64,000 bases of DNA from Iocasia fonsfrigidae. GTDB taxonomy: Bacteria; Bacillota; Halanaerobiia; Halanaerobiales; DTU029. Positions 24,811 through 36,004 of the stretch are shown here, piece by piece (position 1 is the stretch's first letter; every line of letters begins with the position of its first letter). The translations under genes and the position numbers were made by a program. Under the pieces are notes generated by a model. The model had not been told where the DNA came from and ran no database searches. It was given only the letters and a program-made list of their open reading frames with translations. The DNA is taken from assembly GCF_017751145.1 (NCBI RefSeq), contig NZ_CP046640.1, forward strand, positions 2,832,137 through 2,896,136, written 5' to 3'.

Positions 24811-25680
24811 CTACTGAGTTAATATCTTAAATTCATCTTTACCAATAAAGACTAGCAATACCTTTTTAACATCTTTTTTATCCTTAAATTTCCTACTATC
24901 TGCATATCTCTGCAACTGGGTTAGACCCTTTTCTTTAACCTTCTCTATCTCGTCTCTTTGATTTTTCTTTAAATACTTTAACTCAATTATCCATTCATAT
25001 TTAACATCGGGCATCCGAATATCTCTTTCCAGGAAAATATCTAGATATCCACTCTCTATCTCAGGTTCACTTATTGGATGATATAGATTGCTGGTTATAA
25101 GATAGGAAAATAATATCACTTTAATATATTTTTCGTCAAAGTTAATCAGGTCCCGGTTGGATAGTCTATTTAAAACATTTTCACTAACATAAGATACAAA
25201 TGGTTCTATTTCACCATCAAAGCCTAACTGCCAGATGGATTTTGCTAATTCTTCAGTATCATATTTGATATTGTATTTGTCACGTAGTTTGCGTTCAAAA
25301 TACTCCCAAAAAATCATTCTTGTAACATGATTAGGGATACCCAGTCGAGTTTTACCATACCTTACACCTTTTATGGTTAATAAGCCCATATAGTATAGCA
25401 ATGAGACAAAGTATTCCTGGTCATACATACGGTCAAAAGAAAACCTTGTAACTATATCAGTTGTTATCCCTTCTTCAGCTAGGATCCCTTCAACTACCTG
25501 TCTGTTTTTCTCATTAGCAATTAAGCGATTGAGACGTCCATAATCAGTTCGGACATTATCATCTATTAATTTTTCAGGATAGTCGCCTGTCATTAACCAT
25601 TGATTGAAAAAGTTTAATATCATATCAGGATTATAAACTGCTTGCTTTCCATTTTTACTAAACAAATAACCATTATAGTT
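24811..25680 (-). pseudogene. 5'-truncated AAA-ATPase-like/DUF1703 (PD-(D/E)XK) gene
   Basis: The sequence starts abruptly within the conserved NYNGYLFS...VYNPDMILNFFNQW segment, which in this family follows an N-terminal AAA-ATPase-like domain of about 200 residues. The remaining 284 residues include the C-terminal nuclease-like domain (SGYLDIFL, WIIELKYLKK, IGKDEF). Family members are common in mobile and conflict-linked gene sets. The ATPase half is absent, and upstream sequence belongs to a different gene in another frame, so this is a fusion scar. A TTG at 25665 could start a short product. Confidence 0.7.
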
Positions 25681-26502
25681 TTTCGTAATTTAGTCAGCAA
25701 CTCACTTTCTTCATCATTGATTTGAAATAATTTTATAATATTTTTTACCTCTGCTTCTGTAAAGCCCAACATACCATTAAATATCTTGTTTAAGGTGAAT
25801 CTACAGATTGTGATGAGATAAGCTTTTTTTGCATACTCTAACCAGTTTGAATTATCTCTCATTCTCAGGAAATGTATATAGGCATTAAACACATCTTCTG
25901 ATTCATGTAACCCTTCTGGAACTTGACTTAGAGGATTTGCACATCCATTATTGCTAATTTGAGACTGAATAAAAACACTAGCTGCATAAGGATCTTCTTT
26001 TTCTATCATTATTTTATATGATATTTCTTCAGCTTTTCTATCATCACCAATTAGTAAGTGACCAGCCGCTTTGTTTTTATTAGCATTTTTATGTTCTGGA
26101 TATTCATTATAAGCATCTAACAGTAGTTGCCCTGCCTCTTCTTGATTTCCTATTTGTAATTTTGCTGAAGCAATCCCAACTAAAATTCTGTATTTCTCAG
26201 AAAGACTTGCATCAGACCATTCTTTTTCTTTAAGCTTCAAAAATTGTTTAAGTGCTGTATGAACCTCTCCTTCATCTATTAAGTTTTGAAATGCTGTTAT
26301 TTGGCCATGTAAGGGTGTATCTTCATTATCATCTAGGTTTACTTTTGTAGGTGATGATGATGTATTTTTACTTACATCTTTCTGATTCATTAATTTGAAA
26401 GTATTTTCTACTTTATCACACTTTATCACTTAGATTTTGAATAGCACTTTCTACAAAAGGATTATAAGTAGGATCAAAGGCTTTCCATGCCTTTTCATGT
26501 TT
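25620..26502 (-). pseudogene. TPR-like gene fragment with a 10-bp tandem-duplication frameshift
   Basis: Helical repeats (ASAKLQIGNQEEAGQLLLDA, NKAAGHLLIGDDRKAEEISYK) suggest a tetratricopeptide-type protein. Coding sequence continues upstream of the GTG at 26429: HEKAWKAFDPTYNPF...QNLSDK is in a second frame. The two frames join cleanly if one copy of the tandem ACTTTATCAC (26410-26419, 26420-26429) is removed. The 5' end is cut at the hsdM junction near 26502, and the 3' end runs into the DUF1703 remnant. I do not recognise the family. Confidence 0.65.
26410..26429. repeat. 10-bp tandem duplication causing a frameshift
   Basis: ACTTTATCAC occurs twice in a row. Deleting one copy restores one continuous minus-strand reading frame through NLSDKVENTFKLMNQ. 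Confidence 0.8.
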
Positions 26503-27441
26503 CGTGCAGTAACTGATTTTATTATTAATAGACTAGATCCAAAGATTGGAGATAGAATAGCGGATTTTGCTTGTGGGACTGGTGGATTCTTGATTTCAGC
26601 TTTAAACCATATGAAATCAAGTAAGGAACATTTTACTACTGAAGAAAGTGAAACAATTAAAAAATCACTTCATGGTATTGAGAAAAAACCTATGCCACAT
26701 TTATTATGTTGTACTAATATGATTCTTCATGACATTGATTTTCCAGATATAATACATGATAACTCATTAGCAACAGATATCAGGGATTATCCTGAAGCCA
26801 AGAAATACGATATTATAGCTATGAATCCTCCATTTGGTGGTAATGAAGAAGAGGGCATAAAAATGAATTTTCCTGCTGAGTTTAGAACATCTGAAACTGC
26901 TGATTTATTTATGACCCTTATCATTAATAGAGTAAAGAAAAATGGTCGTGTAGGTATTGTATTACCAGATGGCTTTTTATTTGGAGATGACAATGCAAAA
27001 ATTGCTATTAAGAAAAAATTATTGGATGAATTTAATCTTCATACTATTGTAAGACCTAATGGCGTTTTTGCACCGTATACAGATATTAATACTAATCTAT
27101 TATTCTTTGATTACAATGGAACAGGAACAGAGGAAGTCTGGTACTATGAACATCAATTACCTGAAGGATATAAGAAATATACAAAAACAAAGCCAATTAA
27201 GCTGGAAGAATTTAAAGTAGAACAGGATTGGTGGGATAATAGAAAAGAGAATGAATATGCCTGGAAAGTAACAAAAGAAGAGATAGTTGAAAAAGGTTAT
27301 AACCTGGATATTAATAATCCCTATGTTGAAGAAGATGAATTAAAAGACCCTGAAGTTATCCTTGCGAGATATAATAAATCTGTTAAAGAAGTAGAAGAAG
27401 TTCAGGGAAAAATAATTGCAGAATTAAGGAAGTTGATATAG
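26503..27441 (+). pseudogene. hsdM: 5'-truncated type I methyltransferase gene (hsdM)
   Basis: From 26503 the frame encodes RAVTDFIINRLDP, then the AdoMet-binding DFACGTGGFL and the catalytic MNPPFGG of N6-adenine methyltransferases, and continues to the family C-terminus. About 150 N-terminal residues typical of HsdM are missing. The ORF's apparent start at 26437 lies in the antisense of the neighbouring TPR fragment and is accidental. The catalytic core survives, but loss of the N-terminal domain and of the partner subunits makes function unlikely. Confidence 0.8.
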
Positions 27442-27582: not shown

Positions 27583-27606
27583 TAAAAAAGACTCCTTTTA
27601 GGAGCC
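27583..27606 (-). terminator. Intrinsic terminator at island repeat A
   Basis: GGCTCCTAAAAGGAGTC followed by TTTTTT on the minus strand, a compact hairpin with a good T tract. It lies next to att-like repeat A. Confidence 0.7.
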
Positions 27607-27771: not shown

Positions 27772-28491
27772 TTATTCAAAACTAATGATACCTAATTGTA
27801 AAAATGCAATTGATAATAAACTTAATGTTTTGTACGTTGATTTCTTTAAATAATAATTTTCCTGTTTATTAAATATCTGTATATTAGCTCTTGAGAAGTT
27901 ATCTATATCTAAGTCTATTTCTTCATTTTCAAGATAATTTTTTAATTCAACTACAGCATTTTTAATTGAATCTTCATGAATATTGTTAATTTGTATGTGA
28001 TTATTATTAGAAATAAATATTTTTGCCTCTGATCCAAGTGCAAAATCATTATCATAAGAATCAGTTAAAAAATTAGATATAACAAAACTTTCAACAGATG
28101 GATAACTCAATAACAAAACTCCACCTCGTAAATCGCCATTTTCATAAGGATCTCTCAACTTATAAATTAATTTTTTTATTAACTCGACATCTGTATTAGA
28201 TTTAGGATCTCTATCAAATAAATAATATATAGCAGTATTGTCAACAGGAAAATTATAATCAATTATTAATGTTTCAAATATATTATCTAAGTAATTATTT
28301 TCATCCTCAACAAATGATATATGTGATTCTTCTGTGTTTATTACTGCAACTCTTGAATTTTTATTCTTATTACTTTGAAAATAATTAGGTCTATTTCGTC
28401 TTTTCTCAATGTATTCATAATCAAGAATACCACAAAAGATCTTCTTTAATAACGAAAATTCAGTTCTCCCGCCTTCAACAATAAACAACAC
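27772..28491 (-). CDS. TOPRIM-like protein, partner of the upstream ATPase (OLD/RloB-like)
   Basis: This 239-residue protein has FIVEGGRTE at the N-terminus (conserved TOPRIM Glu), IYYLFDRDPKSN (the acidic DxD) and LLLSYPSVES, the order seen in TOPRIM-type nuclease domains of OLD, RloB and PARIS AriB partners. I cannot assign the exact family. It begins at GTG 28491, with no clear ribosome site, six codons after the ATPase stop and in the same frame, so it would be made by re-initiation, coupling or readthrough. Together the pair mimics a split OLD protein, a class known in phage defence. Confidence 0.6.
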   Translation of the reverse strand: MLFIVEGGRTEFSLLKKIFCGILDYEYIEKRRNRPNYFQSNKNKNSRVAVINTEESHISFVEDENNYLDNIFETLIIDYNFPVDNTAIYYLFDRDPKSNTDVELIKKLIYKLRDPYENGDLRGGVLLLSYPSVESFVISNFLTDSYDNDFALGSEAKIFISNNNHIQINNIHEDSIKNAVVELKNYLENEEIDLDIDNFSRANIQIFNKQENYYLKKSTYKTLSLLSIAFLQLGIISFE

Positions 28492-28509
28492 TCGACCAAT
28501 GTTTTTTCT

Positions 28510-29667
28510 TTATTCAGTTTCATCATAGTTTGGAAGCCCCTCAAACACACCACTTAAATACATTTTTTCAATATTTTGTGCCAGTCTTGGTTGCTCATCA
28601 GAAAATCTTTTAAGCCAACTACCTTCTGGCCCACTAAAATTAACTGAATAAATTTGATCTGGTCTTAATATTGATGTAGTTAATATATTAGTAGAATGTG
28701 AGACAAAAAATATCTGAGATGATTCAGAATTTCTCATAAAATATTTAATTAATAGTTCTTCCAACTCATTATGAAAACCACTAGAAAATTCATCCACTAA
28801 TAAAATCCCTTTTTTATTAATAATGTTTATGAAAGAAGGCAATATATTTAATAAAGTCTGGTTTCCTAATGATTCCTCTTCATAAGGAATAACAGTATCT
28901 ATATCTTCTCTTCTAAAAAAAACCGTTTTTGAATCATCTCCAGTTCGTAGTTTTATCTTACCATCCGAAAATTCTTTTGAGTATTCTATCACCTGATTAA
29001 AATTATGTTTATTAAAAAAGTTATTAATATCATCTGTACCTTGAGTATTTAAATAATCATTTAACACTAAATCATCTTTTCCATAGGAAATTACTTTTCT
29101 ATCAAATGCATTTATATATATTGAATTCTGAAGGTATTCAAACCAACATTTTAATGTTTCATTACCAGCAAATTTAGTATTAAAATATAAAGTTCTTAAA
29201 AACAATGTTTCATTATCTAAATCATTCTCATCATATAGATTTTCTTTTTGGTCTATAATTGAGGATCTTGCTGTTAGCCCCATTCTATCAAGTAATAAGT
29301 TGTTATCAATATACAATTTCTCCGATAGTACATTCTTAACCGGATTATTGATTACTAAATACCTTATTTCTTTTTTATTAATATTAAAATAATAATCTAA
29401 TGTGAACTCTTCTTTGTCAGAAAATAAACATTTAAATATTCTTGAATTAATGTCTTTCTCTCTAAATAATAAATCTAATAATAGCTTTATAGCAATAATA
29501 ATATTTGACTTTCCAGATGCATTAGCCCCTACAAACATTATACCTTTTAGCACTCCACTTTCTGCGACATTAATATCTTCTAAAAATTTATATTTTGTCC
29601 TGGAAAAATCAATCTCTGTTTCATTTTTGAATGACTTAAAGTTTTTTAATACTATTTTTGATAGCAT
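28510..29667 (-). CDS. OLD/AbiL-like AAA ATPase of an anti-phage type pair
   Basis: An SMC/ABC-type ATPase of 385 residues: the N-terminal ISKIVLKNFKSFKN segment (here LSKIVLKNFKSFKN), Walker A (GANASGKSN), Walker B (GILLVDEFSSGFH) and the switch region FFVSHSTN. This is the AAA_15/AAA_21 class found in OLD, RloA, AbiL and PARIS systems. ATG 29667 follows GAGGAG by 8 nt; a GTG three codons earlier is less likely. Its own promoter lies just upstream. The UAA stop is followed in frame by the TOPRIM-like gene. The reading frame appears intact, unlike neighbouring island genes. Confidence 0.8.
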   Translation of the reverse strand: MLSKIVLKNFKSFKNETEIDFSRTKYKFLEDINVAESGVLKGIMFVGANASGKSNIIIAIKLLLDLLFREKDINSRIFKCLFSDKEEFTLDYYFNINKKEIRYLVINNPVKNVLSEKLYIDNNLLLDRMGLTARSSIIDQKENLYDENDLDNETLFLRTLYFNTKFAGNETLKCWFEYLQNSIYINAFDRKVISYGKDDLVLNDYLNTQGTDDINNFFNKHNFNQVIEYSKEFSDGKIKLRTGDDSKTVFFRREDIDTVIPYEEESLGNQTLLNILPSFINIINKKGILLVDEFSSGFHNELEELLIKYFMRNSESSQIFFVSHSTNILTTSILRPDQIYSVNFSGPEGSWLKRFSDEQPRLAQNIEKMYLSGVFEGLPNYDETE

Positions 29668-29687: not shown

Positions 29688-29717
29688 ATTATACCACATC
29701 TTTATTATTATGTGCAA
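29688..29717 (-). promoter_or_regulatory. Promoter of the ATPase/TOPRIM pair
   Basis: TTGCAC at 29717-29712, an 18-nt spacer and an extended -10 TGGTATAAT ending at 29688, about 20 nt before the ribosome site. Confidence 0.65.
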
Positions 29718-29921: not shown

Positions 29922-32813
29922 CTATTTGATACTACCCAACAATTCATTGGCTACTTCTAAACTATTTAACCTCATAATACTTTCCTGTGATTTCCCATAA
30001 CTTAATAAACTAATGTCTCCATACCATACTAATTGATTATCAATTGCTGCAAATTTCTGGTATAACTGTTCTTTAAATTTTAGTTCAACACCTTCGGATT
30101 TAATCATATCATATATCTTAAGAATACTTTTTCTTTGTTCATTCTTAAAATCATCAACAGGACGGGTTATTATAATTACCTTAACATTATTGTTTGAGGC
30201 ACCAGCTAATAATTTTAACATATCTGAAGTTTTTCTTTTATTGATATAAGGACTAACGATAAATATTTGTTTATTAGCTGCAGCAATATCAGTAGAAAAG
30301 GTAGTTAAAAAATTAGTATTATCGAATATAACACTAATATTATCCTTTTCTTTCAAATCACTTTTAACTTTATACCCAATTGTTGCATATCCCTTTAATC
30401 TTTTTTGATACATTCTTTCAAGAACCTTTATATGAATATCAACATAATCATAAATATATACTTCTTTTTTCTCTTCATATAATCGATGCAATCTACCGGC
30501 ATACTGTTGTAGTCTACCCTTCCATGATATTGGAAAAGTTAAAAAAAGAGTATCCAATCTTGGATAATCAAAACCCTCACCAATATATTTCCCGGTAGCA
30601 ATGATAAGTATATTCTCAGAGACGGGAATATTTTTTAATTTTTCTTCGGTCTCCTTACGTTCTTTAGCAGTTAAGCTACCTGTAAGTACAAAAATATTTT
30701 TTATTTTATTCTTCAGTAAATCATAAAGTTTCTGGACATGTGCAGTTCTTTCAGTTAATGCAATAATATTCCTGCCTTCATCTATATTTTTCAAAATATC
30801 CTCGCTAATTAATTTATTTCTTATTTGATTATTTGCAATATAAGAGAATACTTCCTGTATTGAATTATATTTTATTCTTTTCTCTGTTACGGGCATTTTT
30901 ACAGGAGATATCCTTGGGATTACAAAGTGGTCAAATGGTCTTTCTGCCGCCTTTTTCTTTGGACTCTGCCTGTAACGAATATCACCAAGACACATAAAAA
31001 AAATTGGATGGTGTCCATCTTTTCTAATTGGTGTAGTAGTTAAACCATATACATATCTGGCACTAACAGTCTTTAATAATTTTTCATAACTAAAAGAAGC
31101 TGCATGCTGACATTCATCTATAATAACCATCCCATAGTCTTTGACTAAATCCTTAACTTCTCCTTTTCTAACTAAAGACTGGATTAAAGCTATATCAACA
31201 ATCTGTTTCTGTTTGCTTTTTCCTCCTCCAATTTGACCAATTATATCAAAATCTTTTTTTTCTATATTATTATTTTTTTGAGCTAAATTCTTATTAATCA
31301 TTAGAAATTTTTTTACAGTATTTCTCCATTGCTGAACAAGCTGTCTTGTATGAACAACAATTAAAGTATTAACTTTTTTCTCAGAAATAATATTTGCCCC
31401 AACCACTGTTTTACCAAATGCTGTTGTTGCAGAGAGGATACCTGTTTCATATTTAAGCAATTCACCAACCGCTTCAACTTGAGTAGGTCTTAATTGACCA
31501 TTAAAGCTTACATCTATCTTCATTCCTTCATTTCTTTTGTCAATAAGATCAATTTCAGTATTACCCTTTTTGAATAAGATATTAAGCTCCTTCTCACAAC
31601 CACGGGGCAAACATAAATATTGGTCTGTCTCTTCCGACAATGAAATAATTCTGGGCTTATTATAAGTTGGTAAACGCATAGCCTGTGCTTTATAAAATTC
31701 AGGATTCGGAAAAGCACCCAGTCTCTTTATTTCATTCATTAGTTTTTGAGATAAACCTTCTTTTTCAATATATAACATATCAGCTTTAACTATAGAAACA
31801 CTACTGGGATAATCTGAAAAAAACATCACAGTCTGAATAGACTTTTTCTCCCAAGGTTTCTCATCTTTATCTGTCCCAAAATTACCAAGTTCATTACCAG
31901 TTGTCAGTTCAAGAATATATTTTTCAACTTCAGATTTCTTTATCTTTTGTATATCAGATAGAAATTTCCATTGATCTTCATATGCTACAAAGTTTTCATC
32001 TACAAATAGACTGTTTCCATCTTTTCTGGCCAACTTTTGTAAGGGGAGAGAAATTAGGTTTCCCAGGCCACCTTTTGGCCTGGTATCCTGGTTTGGAAAT
32101 AATCTATCGTATGATTCAAATTTAATTTCATGCCTTTTTTCCATAGCATAAGTTATTATTGCTGTACCAAATTTTCTTGCAAGAGATGCTGATATTTTTT
32201 CTGCAAAGAAAAACCAGACATGTGCTCCATTTCCCGACCGTGAACGTTCAATATATAAAGGGATATCTTTTTCACTAGAAATCTGTCTTAATATCGAAAC
32301 ATCATCTTGCCAGGTCCCTTTATCAAAATCAATAGCAAGAAATTTACAGGTTTCATCCTTTAATAATGGGTAAACACCTATAATTTCTTTTCCTAGTAAA
32401 TGATTTCTTATTACTGTTTCTGTTAACTTATCAAATTTTCTATGTTTACAATTTAAACATTTAACTTTTGGCTTTTCACATAATCCCTGGACCCATTCGT
32501 TTATGCATACAGGTGAATAACCTGTATTCCCGTTTTTACTCTTCCATCTATGAGCATAAACATCTTCTCTTCCCTGAAAAAGTGATTTAAATACATCTAT
32601 CTTTTTATCAGGAGAATTAACTATATTTAGCTCATTAGAATTTTGTTCTTCCACATTCTCTTGATGATTTTTATTGGAATCAATATTAATCTTATTATTC
32701 TCGCTGTCAAAAATTAGATCATATTCTTGATGGTATAAAGAAATTTCTTCTTTTAGTTTTTTATTCTCTTTCAATAACATCTTATATCTTTGATATAATT
32801 CATTATAATCCAT
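29922..32813 (-). CDS. TOTE-type conflict protein: primase, SF2 helicase and PLD-like domain
   Basis: A 963-residue multidomain protein. A coiled coil (1-60) precedes an archaeo-eukaryotic primase region with zinc-like CEKPKVKCLNCKH and the catalytic FLAIDFDKG (about 161). An SF2 helicase follows, with AFGKT (about 467), DECQ (about 568) and QYAGRLHR (about 773). The C-terminal 125 residues are PLD-like, but the HxK histidine is replaced by Tyr (YQKFAAIDNQLVWYG). The primase-helicase-nuclease layout is known from TOTE conflict systems. The ATG follows GGAGGG. The intact frame suggests a working gene. Confidence 0.85.
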   Translation of the reverse strand: MDYNELYQRYKMLLKENKKLKEEISLYHQEYDLIFDSENNKINIDSNKNHQENVEEQNSNELNIVNSPDKKIDVFKSLFQGREDVYAHRWKSKNGNTGYSPVCINEWVQGLCEKPKVKCLNCKHRKFDKLTETVIRNHLLGKEIIGVYPLLKDETCKFLAIDFDKGTWQDDVSILRQISSEKDIPLYIERSRSGNGAHVWFFFAEKISASLARKFGTAIITYAMEKRHEIKFESYDRLFPNQDTRPKGGLGNLISLPLQKLARKDGNSLFVDENFVAYEDQWKFLSDIQKIKKSEVEKYILELTTGNELGNFGTDKDEKPWEKKSIQTVMFFSDYPSSVSIVKADMLYIEKEGLSQKLMNEIKRLGAFPNPEFYKAQAMRLPTYNKPRIISLSEETDQYLCLPRGCEKELNILFKKGNTEIDLIDKRNEGMKIDVSFNGQLRPTQVEAVGELLKYETGILSATTAFGKTVVGANIISEKKVNTLIVVHTRQLVQQWRNTVKKFLMINKNLAQKNNNIEKKDFDIIGQIGGGKSKQKQIVDIALIQSLVRKGEVKDLVKDYGMVIIDECQHAASFSYEKLLKTVSARYVYGLTTTPIRKDGHHPIFFMCLGDIRYRQSPKKKAAERPFDHFVIPRISPVKMPVTEKRIKYNSIQEVFSYIANNQIRNKLISEDILKNIDEGRNIIALTERTAHVQKLYDLLKNKIKNIFVLTGSLTAKERKETEEKLKNIPVSENILIIATGKYIGEGFDYPRLDTLFLTFPISWKGRLQQYAGRLHRLYEEKKEVYIYDYVDIHIKVLERMYQKRLKGYATIGYKVKSDLKEKDNISVIFDNTNFLTTFSTDIAAANKQIFIVSPYINKRKTSDMLKLLAGASNNNVKVIIITRPVDDFKNEQRKSILKIYDMIKSEGVELKFKEQLYQKFAAIDNQLVWYGDISLLSYGKSQESIMRLNSLEVANELLGSIK

Positions 32814-32990: not shown

Positions 32991-34133
32991 TTAAGTCTTG
33001 TTATATCCAGAATTCTTCCACCTTTTAGCTTTTCTTCTCATTTCTGAAACAGGTATATTTAGGACAACAGCAGCCTTATTAATAGTTATTTTTTTCTCTA
33101 TTACTAACTTTCTGACCAAAGCAAGTAATTTCTCATTCTTTTTAATATATTCTCTAGGGTTAGGTTCAGCGGTCTCAAATCCCCTTTTTCTTAAAAACTT
33201 AAATAATGCTCCCAAAGTTGGACCATCAATTAAACCATTTTCTTTTAAGGCCATTATTAAACTTTTAGCACTAACACCAAAATCTTTTTTCTTTTCAATA
33301 ATTAAATCCAAATCAACGTAGCCATCAAAATAATAACTATAACTTTCCAGCACTTTGGCCGGTATTAAAAAAGACATGGCAAAATAATCTGCAACTTTTT
33401 CCCTAATATCTTTAATTCCAGAGTTAGTATATTTCAATTGAGATACATCTTTGCTATATTCCTCTCGATGAAGTATTAAATGCCCCAATTCGTGCACAAC
33501 TGAAAAGATTTTTCTCTCCTCTGGAATATCTTTTCTATCATTAATAAATATAAAGGCACCTTTATCCTTTGAATAAGCAGATAATGCATCTAAATTTTGG
33601 TCATATATTTCCTGGGCCATAATGTTAATGTTATTTTCCTCAAAAAGATTAAAAATATTTACATTAAGTGCATCATCTACACCCATATACCTTCTCTGTT
33701 TTTCAGCAATTTTAGCAATAGTCTCTTTTTCTTTTTTAGATAATTTATCTCCTTTAATCTCTATATTATATTCTTCAGGAATATAATCCTTAATTTGTAA
33801 ATCACTCATCTCAATTACTTCATGGTAATAATTAAATCTTTGACTAATTTGTTCTTTTAATATCTTATTAAAGTTATTTTCAAGATCATCAGCTCTAAAC
33901 ATAAAAGCCATATCATCTTCATTATTATCTTGAGATAAAAAATAGTCTATCGACTTATTGAAATGTTTTGCAAGTTTATAAAGTTTACCACAATCTAAGA
34001 TCCGTTCTCCGTTAAGATATTTAGAAATAGTCTGACGAGTAACATCGATAATTTCTCCTAATTCTTTCTGACTATAGTTATTTTCTTCTTGAACCTTACG
34101 CAAATTGTATCCAATAATTTTGGCAATATTCAT
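32991..34133 (-). CDS. XRE regulator fused to an ImmA/IrrE zinc peptidase
   Basis: An N-terminal Cro/C1 helix-turn-helix (YSQKELGEIIDVTRQTISKYL) is followed by a middle linker and an ImmA/IrrE-type metallopeptidase motif, HELGHLILHRE. Such proteins cleave or relieve repressors or antitoxins on damage or phage signals, or act as antitoxin-type regulators. I use ATG 34133, eight nt from AGGGGG. It lies upstream of the TOTE gene on the same strand, so it may control it. A TTTAAT-17-TATAAT promoter with extended -10 is at 34261-34233. Confidence 0.8.
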   Translation of the reverse strand: MNIAKIIGYNLRKVQEENNYSQKELGEIIDVTRQTISKYLNGERILDCGKLYKLAKHFNKSIDYFLSQDNNEDDMAFMFRADDLENNFNKILKEQISQRFNYYHEVIEMSDLQIKDYIPEEYNIEIKGDKLSKKEKETIAKIAEKQRRYMGVDDALNVNIFNLFEENNINIMAQEIYDQNLDALSAYSKDKGAFIFINDRKDIPEERKIFSVVHELGHLILHREEYSKDVSQLKYTNSGIKDIREKVADYFAMSFLIPAKVLESYSYYFDGYVDLDLIIEKKKDFGVSAKSLIMALKENGLIDGPTLGALFKFLRKRGFETAEPNPREYIKKNEKLLALVRKLVIEKKITINKAAVVLNIPVSEMRRKAKRWKNSGYNKT

Positions 34134-34232
34134 CTTCTCCACCCCCTAATATCTATTATTACACTAATTTGTTATTTTTATATTACTATTTTATTATATT
34201 TTTATTCATTTATGTTATGTTTTGTTAACATT

Positions 34233-35272: not shown

Positions 35273-36004
35273 CTAATATATCAATTTCAAATATAAATCT
35301 AAACTTCTATTTAATGCTTCAACTATTAATTTAATGAACCCACTATAATCTCCTGTAGTATGAGCTTTATCTAAAGTCTCATAATATTTTACCCTGTCTT
35401 CATTTCTAACAATTATTATTGGATATCCGTTTCTCATCAATTCAAAGTTCAATAAAACTCTTGCTGTTCTTCCATTACCATCAATAAATGGATGTATTTT
35501 TACAAAATCTGTATGTAATACTGCGGCTCTCTCAACTGGATGTAATTCTTTGCCCTTTCCGTAATACCACTCAATTAATTTTTCCATTTGTTCTTGAACT
35601 CTAATAGGGTCTGGTGGTATATGTTCAGCCCCACTAATAACAACTTTTTCTTTTCTATACCTTCCAGCGTTATCATCATCTATTCCTTTCAAAATTAAAT
35701 TATGTATATTTTTTATTTGCCTTTCTGATAATTTTTCATTATTATTAATTATGTCTTCCATATACAAAATTGCTTCTTTATGATTTATAACTTCTAGATG
35801 TTCTTTTAATGTTTTCCCACCAACAGTAATACCATCTTCTAATACAACCTTCGTTTCTGATAAGGTTAATGTATTGCCTTCAATCGCATTTGAATTATAT
35901 GTCCATTCTAAAAATAATTTCTCTCTTAAGCTTTTCAGTGTATTTTTCGGTAGTGGTCTTTTCTTTTCAATTTTATTTTTCTTTTTATCAATCACTTCGA
36001 ACAT
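35273..36004 (-). CDS. Fic family protein (AMPylase-type), class II
   Basis: The catalytic motif HPFIDGNGRTAR is intact. An N-terminal SNAIEGN element matches the (S/T)xxxE(G/N) inhibitory helix of class II Fic proteins. Fic enzymes usually transfer AMP to a protein target, and this inhibitory helix keeps them off until relieved. The length, 243 residues, is typical. The ATG follows GGGGG. It is the island gene closest to the tRNA-Thr gene, with no antitoxin gene beside it, which fits the class II arrangement. Confidence 0.9.
   Translation of the reverse strand: MFEVIDKKKNKIEKKRPLPKNTLKSLREKLFLEWTYNSNAIEGNTLTLSETKVVLEDGITVGGKTLKEHLEVINHKEAILYMEDIINNNEKLSERQIKNIHNLILKGIDDDNAGRYRKEKVVISGAEHIPPDPIRVQEQMEKLIEWYYGKGKELHPVERAAVLHTDFVKIHPFIDGNGRTARVLLNFELMRNGYPIIIVRNEDRVKYYETLDKAHTTGDYSGFIKLIVEALNRSLDLYLKLIY

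What the first reader, a model, noticed from the sequence alone, without database searches (positions are those of the whole stretch)
27772..29667. ATPase and TOPRIM-like genes joined in one reading frame across a single UAA
Seen directly: the AAA ATPase ends in TAA at 28512-28510. The next protein begins six codons later (GTG 28491) in the same frame, with no ribosome site. Known: OLD-family nucleases are one chain of ATPase plus TOPRIM; PARIS and AbiL-type systems are two-gene pairs. Inference: this may be an OLD-like protein that is naturally split, or one read through the stop, or a very young split. It is intact with its own promoter, inside an island where most other genes are broken, so it may be under selection.
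Basis: partly seen in the sequence, partly recalled or inferred. Interest (0 to 1): 0.72.

Follow-up and report, generated by a model that had tools for sequence, protein, structure and literature searches.

The report
AbiL-type defence pair, effector gene frameshifted
This is an ordinary two-gene AbiL-type anti-phage module in which the toxic partner gene is one base short near its start, so that it only appears to continue the frame of the neighbouring ATPase; relatives show the toxic half being broken again and again while the ATPase half stays intact.

Summary
The sequence facts are right: an AAA ATPase frame (29667-28513, minus strand) ends in UAA at 28512-28510, and a 245-codon frame follows in phase. 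The interpretation (natural split of a fused OLD-like protein, or stop read-through) is not supported. All 28 intact relatives keep two genes in DIFFERENT frames, the second usually starting at an ATG overlapping the ATPase stop. That start exists in the window too (ATGATG 28526-28521, GAGGGG upstream), but in another frame; an A tract (28507-28502) is one base short against the nearest relative, which puts gene 2 in phase with the ATPase by accident. The pair is AbiL-like: AbiLi-type ATPase (E=5.9e-46) plus RloB/AbiLii-like TOPRIM-type effector. The effector is probably recently inactivated (dN/dS about 0.17, no further stop), unless the base is a sequencing error or weak initiation at GTG 28491 suffices. 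Both nearest relatives also have a broken gene 2, by other lesions. Over 40 scored loci: 28 intact, 12 with only the effector broken, none with only the ATPase broken. This fits an ATPase that holds a toxic effector in check. New member of a known kind.

The parts
28510..29667 (-). Gene 1: AbiLi-type AAA ATPase, 385 aa, open (ATG 29667; GTG 29676 also possible)
   Evidence: PADLOC AbiLi E=5.9e-46, Pfam AAA_21 1.7e-17; 78-83% identical in two relatives
28537..28542 (-). GAGGGG, Shine-Dalgarno-like, 10 nt before the overlapping ATG (also codes for conserved residues of the ATPase end)
   Evidence: Sequence; same in relatives
28521..28526 (-). ATGATG: ancestral start of gene 2, overlapping the ATPase stop in another frame
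   Evidence: Position of the gene 2 start in L022, L023 and other relatives
28446..28526 (-). What the ancestral start now reads: 26 codons, then a stop
   Evidence: frame 2 of W
28510..28512 (-). UAA stop of the ATPase
28502..28507 (-). Six-A tract, one base short against the nearest relative: the frameshift
   Evidence: DNA alignment of window, L003 and L004
27772..28509 (-). Gene 2 body: RloB/AbiLii-like TOPRIM-type effector frame, 245 codons, displaced from its start; first usual start codon GTG 28491
29688..29716 (-). Promoter-like site TGCACA-17-TATAAT before the ATPase (no better than chance by count)
27590..27606 (-). Terminator-like hairpin plus T run downstream of gene 2
   Evidence: 1 found, 0.4 expected

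Best explanation
An AbiL-like two-gene anti-phage module. Shown: gene 1 is a full-length AbiLi-type ATPase; gene 2 is an RloB/AbiLii-like protein with the invariant E and DxD expected of a TOPRIM nuclease; in relatives gene 2 starts at an ATG overlapping the ATPase stop in another frame; in the window an A tract just after that start is one base short, so the true start runs into an early stop and the rest of gene 2 lies in the ATPase frame by accident. Inferred: the intact module works like AbiL and PARIS, the ATPase sensing infection and holding a toxic nuclease in check, with coupled translation over the overlap. In this strain the effector has recently been switched off, probably by slippage in the A tract, leaving the ATPase alone. 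The same outcome (effector lost, ATPase kept) arose repeatedly in relatives, as expected if loss of the ATPase alone is harmful and loss of the effector is not.
For: Overlapping start in another frame and single-base gap against L003; 28 intact relatives all with different frames for the two genes; AbiLi E=5.9e-46, 22 of 22 relatives; AbiLii, PDC-M12B, RloB matches of gene 2 relatives; invariant E18, D105, D107; model pLDDT 92.5 with best viral match an RloB-like protein; dN/dS 0.17 of gene 2 against L020 and L023; effector-only lesions 12, ATPase-only 0, and 7 to 0 when searched with gene 2. Literature: AbiLii of F. nucleatum toxic (PMC3985639); AAA-neutralised TOPRIM toxins (PMC10440598); AriA holds AriB (PMC12409363).
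Against: Gene 2 is otherwise conserved and open, so a product from GTG 28491 or a sequencing error remains possible. F. nucleatum AbiLi did not neutralise its AbiLii (PMC3985639). No PDB fold match for gene 2, so TOPRIM rests on motifs, family matches and one viral model match.
Confidence: 0.72

Rival explanations
1. Sequencing or assembly error: the real tract is one base longer and the pair is intact and ordinary.
For: A tracts are prone to indel errors; gene 2 is otherwise open with dN/dS 0.17.
Against: The genome is one contig, 99.1% complete; ORF lengths and coverage of a 400-kb sample are normal (mean 289 aa, 0.85); gene 2 is also broken in both nearest relatives, in L020 by a deletion that is no homopolymer error.
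Confidence: 0.15
2. Gene 2 is still made as a shortened, working effector from GTG 28491 by re-initiation of ribosomes that end the ATPase 18 nt upstream.
For: GTG close to the stop; catalytic residues all downstream of it; frame open and conserved.
Against: No ribosome site; 12 residues lost including near-invariant K8 and G11 and the first predicted strand; no intact relative starts there.
Confidence: 0.12
3. Programmed or occasional slippage (ribosomal -1 or transcriptional) on the A tract restores the effector, acting as a low-level or phase-variable switch.
For: The lesion in the window and in L023 both lie in A tracts.
Against: Only six A; no proper X XXY YYZ heptamer in the start's frame; the tract is not conserved (GATAAAAGC in L023, A4 or less at that place in most others); the other lesions are deletions or lie elsewhere.
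Confidence: 0.06
4. A fused OLD-like ATPase-TOPRIM chain that is naturally split by, or read through, the UAA.
For: The two frames coincide across one UAA.
Against: No fused relative among 28 intact loci; all have two overlapping or abutting genes in different frames; gene 2's own start is identifiable.
Confidence: 0.02

Closest known systems
AbiL (AbiLi/AbiLii) abortive infection, first described in Lactococcus lactis; PADLOC also lists the near candidate PDC-M12A/B
   Same: Bicistronic; AbiLi-type AAA ATPase followed directly by an RloB/AbiLii-like TOPRIM-type protein
   Different: Gene 2 is only distantly similar to the AbiLii model (window E=1.7e-4) and is frameshifted in the window
RloB family (type I restriction-linked; TOPRIM-related by HHPred in PMC10440598)
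   Same: IVEG..TE, FDRD and LSYPS.E motifs resemble RloB; 2 of 22 relatives match Pfam RloB (8.1e-5); best viral model match is RloB-like
   Different: Most members stay under detection by Pfam RloB; no match in the window's own gene
PARIS (AriA/AriB)
   Same: ATPase sensor plus separate TOPRIM effector; the likely working model
   Different: ATPase matches AriA far less than AbiLi (8.6e-19 against 5.9e-46); gene 2 has no DUF4435 match
OLD family / Gabija GajA
   Same: ATPase and TOPRIM-type functions side by side
   Different: One chain in OLD; two genes in all intact relatives here; only weak GajA matches

Membership tests
AbiL | AbiLi-type AAA ATPase as first gene | tested here: met
   PADLOC AbiLi E=5.9e-46 in the window, 22 of 22 in alignment A2
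AbiL | AbiLii-type (RloB-like, TOPRIM-type) second gene | tested here: met
   Window E=1.7e-4; 7 of 22 relatives match AbiLii, best 3.1e-8, and 14 match PDC-M12B. Weak but consistent; PDC-M12 is the nearer model for gene 2
AbiL | Two adjacent genes, both able to be made | tested here: inconclusive
   Adjacent, but gene 2 is displaced from its start by one base in the window; intact in 28 relatives
AbiL | Abortive infection on phage challenge | not testable with these tools
   Needs an assay
RloB (PF13707) | Score over the curated cut-off | tested here: not met
   Window's gene and genome have no match; 2 of 22 relatives match with best E=8.1e-5
TOPRIM | Conserved E and DxD on an alternating alpha/beta fold | tested here: met
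   E18, D105, D107 invariant in 22 sequences; strands and helices alternate around them in the model
TOPRIM | Structural match to a solved TOPRIM nuclease | tested here: inconclusive
   No clear PDB match; best viral match RloB-like protein, prob 1.00, TM 0.47/0.54
OLD family | ATPase and TOPRIM in one chain | tested here: not met
   Separate genes in different frames in 28 intact relatives
PARIS | AriB-type DUF4435 effector | tested here: not met
   No DUF4435 match in gene 2, its relatives or the window's genome

The most novel reading that the evidence does not exclude
In this AbiL-like clade the ATPase is kept for its own sake after the effector is lost, for instance as a stand-alone neutraliser against incoming AbiLii-type effectors, so that effector-less loci are a functional end state and not just decay.
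Probability: 0.12. Interest if true: 0.6.

Novelty: new member of a known kind. Interest (0 to 1): 0.33.

Why it matters
The finding as given is explained by one missing base. What is left over is useful: effector and ATPase of this AbiL-like clade decay in a one-sided way (12 effector-only against 0 ATPase-only lesions), a genomic and testable sign that the ATPase keeps the effector in check in vivo. That question is open for AbiL, since published neutralisation tests disagree between pairs (PMC3985639 against PMC10440598).

Tried and rejected
Fused OLD-like chain, UAA read-through and programmed frameshift: see rivals. Search for gene 2 by its own window sequence in plasmids and genome contigs: no match; relatives came only through the ATPase or the gene 2 alignment. 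PDB fold search gave no usable hit and a sequence search of the PDB none. Profile comparison with single RloB or PDC-M12B-type sequences was too weak to use. RloB homologues in viral contigs: none. Indel-error test against orthologues of G008: only 3 pairs, uninformative, so ORF statistics were used. L115 (run of N) and L133 (contig edge) were left out of the lesion count; L108, L110, L119, L121 are duplicates of L028, L029, L052, L039. Searches for papers on one-sided decay of defence effectors found nothing on point.

Full report
Observation. The coordinates are right. The ATPase frame ends in UAA at 28512-28510, and an open frame of 245 codons follows in the same phase, with GTG 28491 as its first usual start codon. 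From the DNA alone I predicted that gene 2 once started there and that a one-base change in the A tract at 28507-28502 moved it (note).

Relatives. Two close relatives exist in the order: L003/L023 (G021, ATPase 83%) and L004/L020 (G008, 78%). L003 reads MMKLNKDKSIGRVLFIVEGGRTEF from the overlapping ATGATG, in a frame other than the ATPase, and the window aligns to it with a single-base gap in the A tract. A genome-contig search with the ATPase gave 79 loci. In the 21 of these with an intact gene 2, and in 7 further intact loci found with gene 2, the two genes lie in different frames; gene 2 usually starts at an ATG overlapping the ATPase stop, a few starts lie just at or past it. One frame for both genes is therefore a private state of the window, produced by one base.

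Identity. The ATPase matches AbiLi at 5.9e-46, and all 22 members of alignment A2 do so. Gene 2 matches AbiLii at 1.7e-4 in the window; among the 22 members of alignment A1, PDC-M12B is matched by 14, AbiLii by 7 and RloB by 2. V17 E18 G19 E23, D105 and D107 are invariant, as for the E and DxD of TOPRIM. The AF2 model of the L022 homologue has pLDDT 92.5. Its best match among viral models is an RloB-like phage protein, probability 1.00, TM 0.47/0.54; the PDB gave no clear match. PMC10440598 reports by HHPred that RloB is related to OLD_TOPRIM and that AbiLii belongs with RloB. I call gene 2 TOPRIM-type with moderate certainty.

State of gene 2 in the window. From the ancestral start only 26 codons can be read. 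From GTG 28491 the product lacks 12 residues, among them near-invariant K8 and G11 and the first strand of the model. The rest is conserved: dN/dS is 0.17 against L020 and L023, although dN relative to the ATPase is raised (1.8-1.9 against a median of 1.16 in intact pairs). That fits a recent loss. A sequencing error cannot be excluded; ORF statistics of 400 kb of the genome show no general indel problem.

One-sided decay. Gene 2 is broken in both nearest relatives too: a frameshift at an A7 tract about 50 codons in (L003/L023), and a deletion of about 190 bp that removes the N-terminal part (L004/L020). Over all loci, after removal of duplicates, 28 pairs are intact. Twelve have an open ATPase and a broken or missing gene 2: window, L020, L023, L027, L029, L038, L039, L040, L050, L051, L111, L137. 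None has only the ATPase broken. Others have both broken or fragmentary (L037, L049, L053, L054, L055, L106, L116, L122, L136). L029 is the mildest case, an in-frame loss near the C-terminus. Because a search with the ATPase is biased, I repeated it with gene 2: in that subset the count is 7 to 0. If first lesions fell by gene length (gene 2 about 39% of the pair), 12 of 12 has probability about 1e-5 and 7 of 7 about 0.0015; this is a rough calculation of mine that ignores relatedness and assembly quality. The lesions differ in kind and place, so I take them as separate events.

Mechanism. By analogy with PARIS, where AriA holds AriB until triggered (PMC12409363), and with AAA-neutralised TOPRIM toxins (PMC10440598), the intact module probably holds a toxic nuclease in check with the ATPase. 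Under that model effector loss is tolerated and ATPase loss is not, which matches the counts. Against it, AbiLi of F. nucleatum did not neutralise its toxic AbiLii (PMC3985639). The step from ATPase retention to neutralisation is inference; the target of the nuclease is unknown.

Verdict. Observation confirmed, explanation ordinary: an AbiL-like pair with a frameshifted effector. The lasting interest is the one-sided decay.

Noticed in passing
window 29922-32813 (-): 963-aa protein with TOTE-type archaeo-eukaryotic primase, helicase and PLD-like domains (Pfam AEP-TOTE 1.1e-103) directly upstream of the ATPase: another conflict-system gene in the island.
   Followed up: no
window 26437-27441 (+) and 24811-25665 (-): Type I methylase lacking its N-terminal part (matches from profile position 166 on), convergent with gene 2; and a PDDEXK_9 nuclease that matches only over its C-terminal part. 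Both look like remnants.
   Followed up: no
window 32991-34142 (-) and 35273-36004 (-): HTH plus ImmA/IrrE-type peptidase (RmrA-like) and a Fic protein, both listed in defence-system models.
   Followed up: no
L030 and L031: ATPases 99% identical (dN 0.003) while gene 2 differs about ten times more (dN 0.037), which hints at exchange or fast divergence of the effector alone.
   Followed up: no
L125 1471-3587 (-), genome G008: A second, different ATPase plus RloB pair (RloB over the Pfam cut-off), also with the second ATG overlapping the ATPase stop.
   Followed up: partly
L022 5984-6271: Remnants of a second, decayed ATPase and gene 2 copy downstream of the intact pair in Defluviitalea.
   Followed up: no
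L105 1841-3771: An intact pair on an IMG/VR contig, so the module can probably be carried by a virus or prophage.
   Followed up: no
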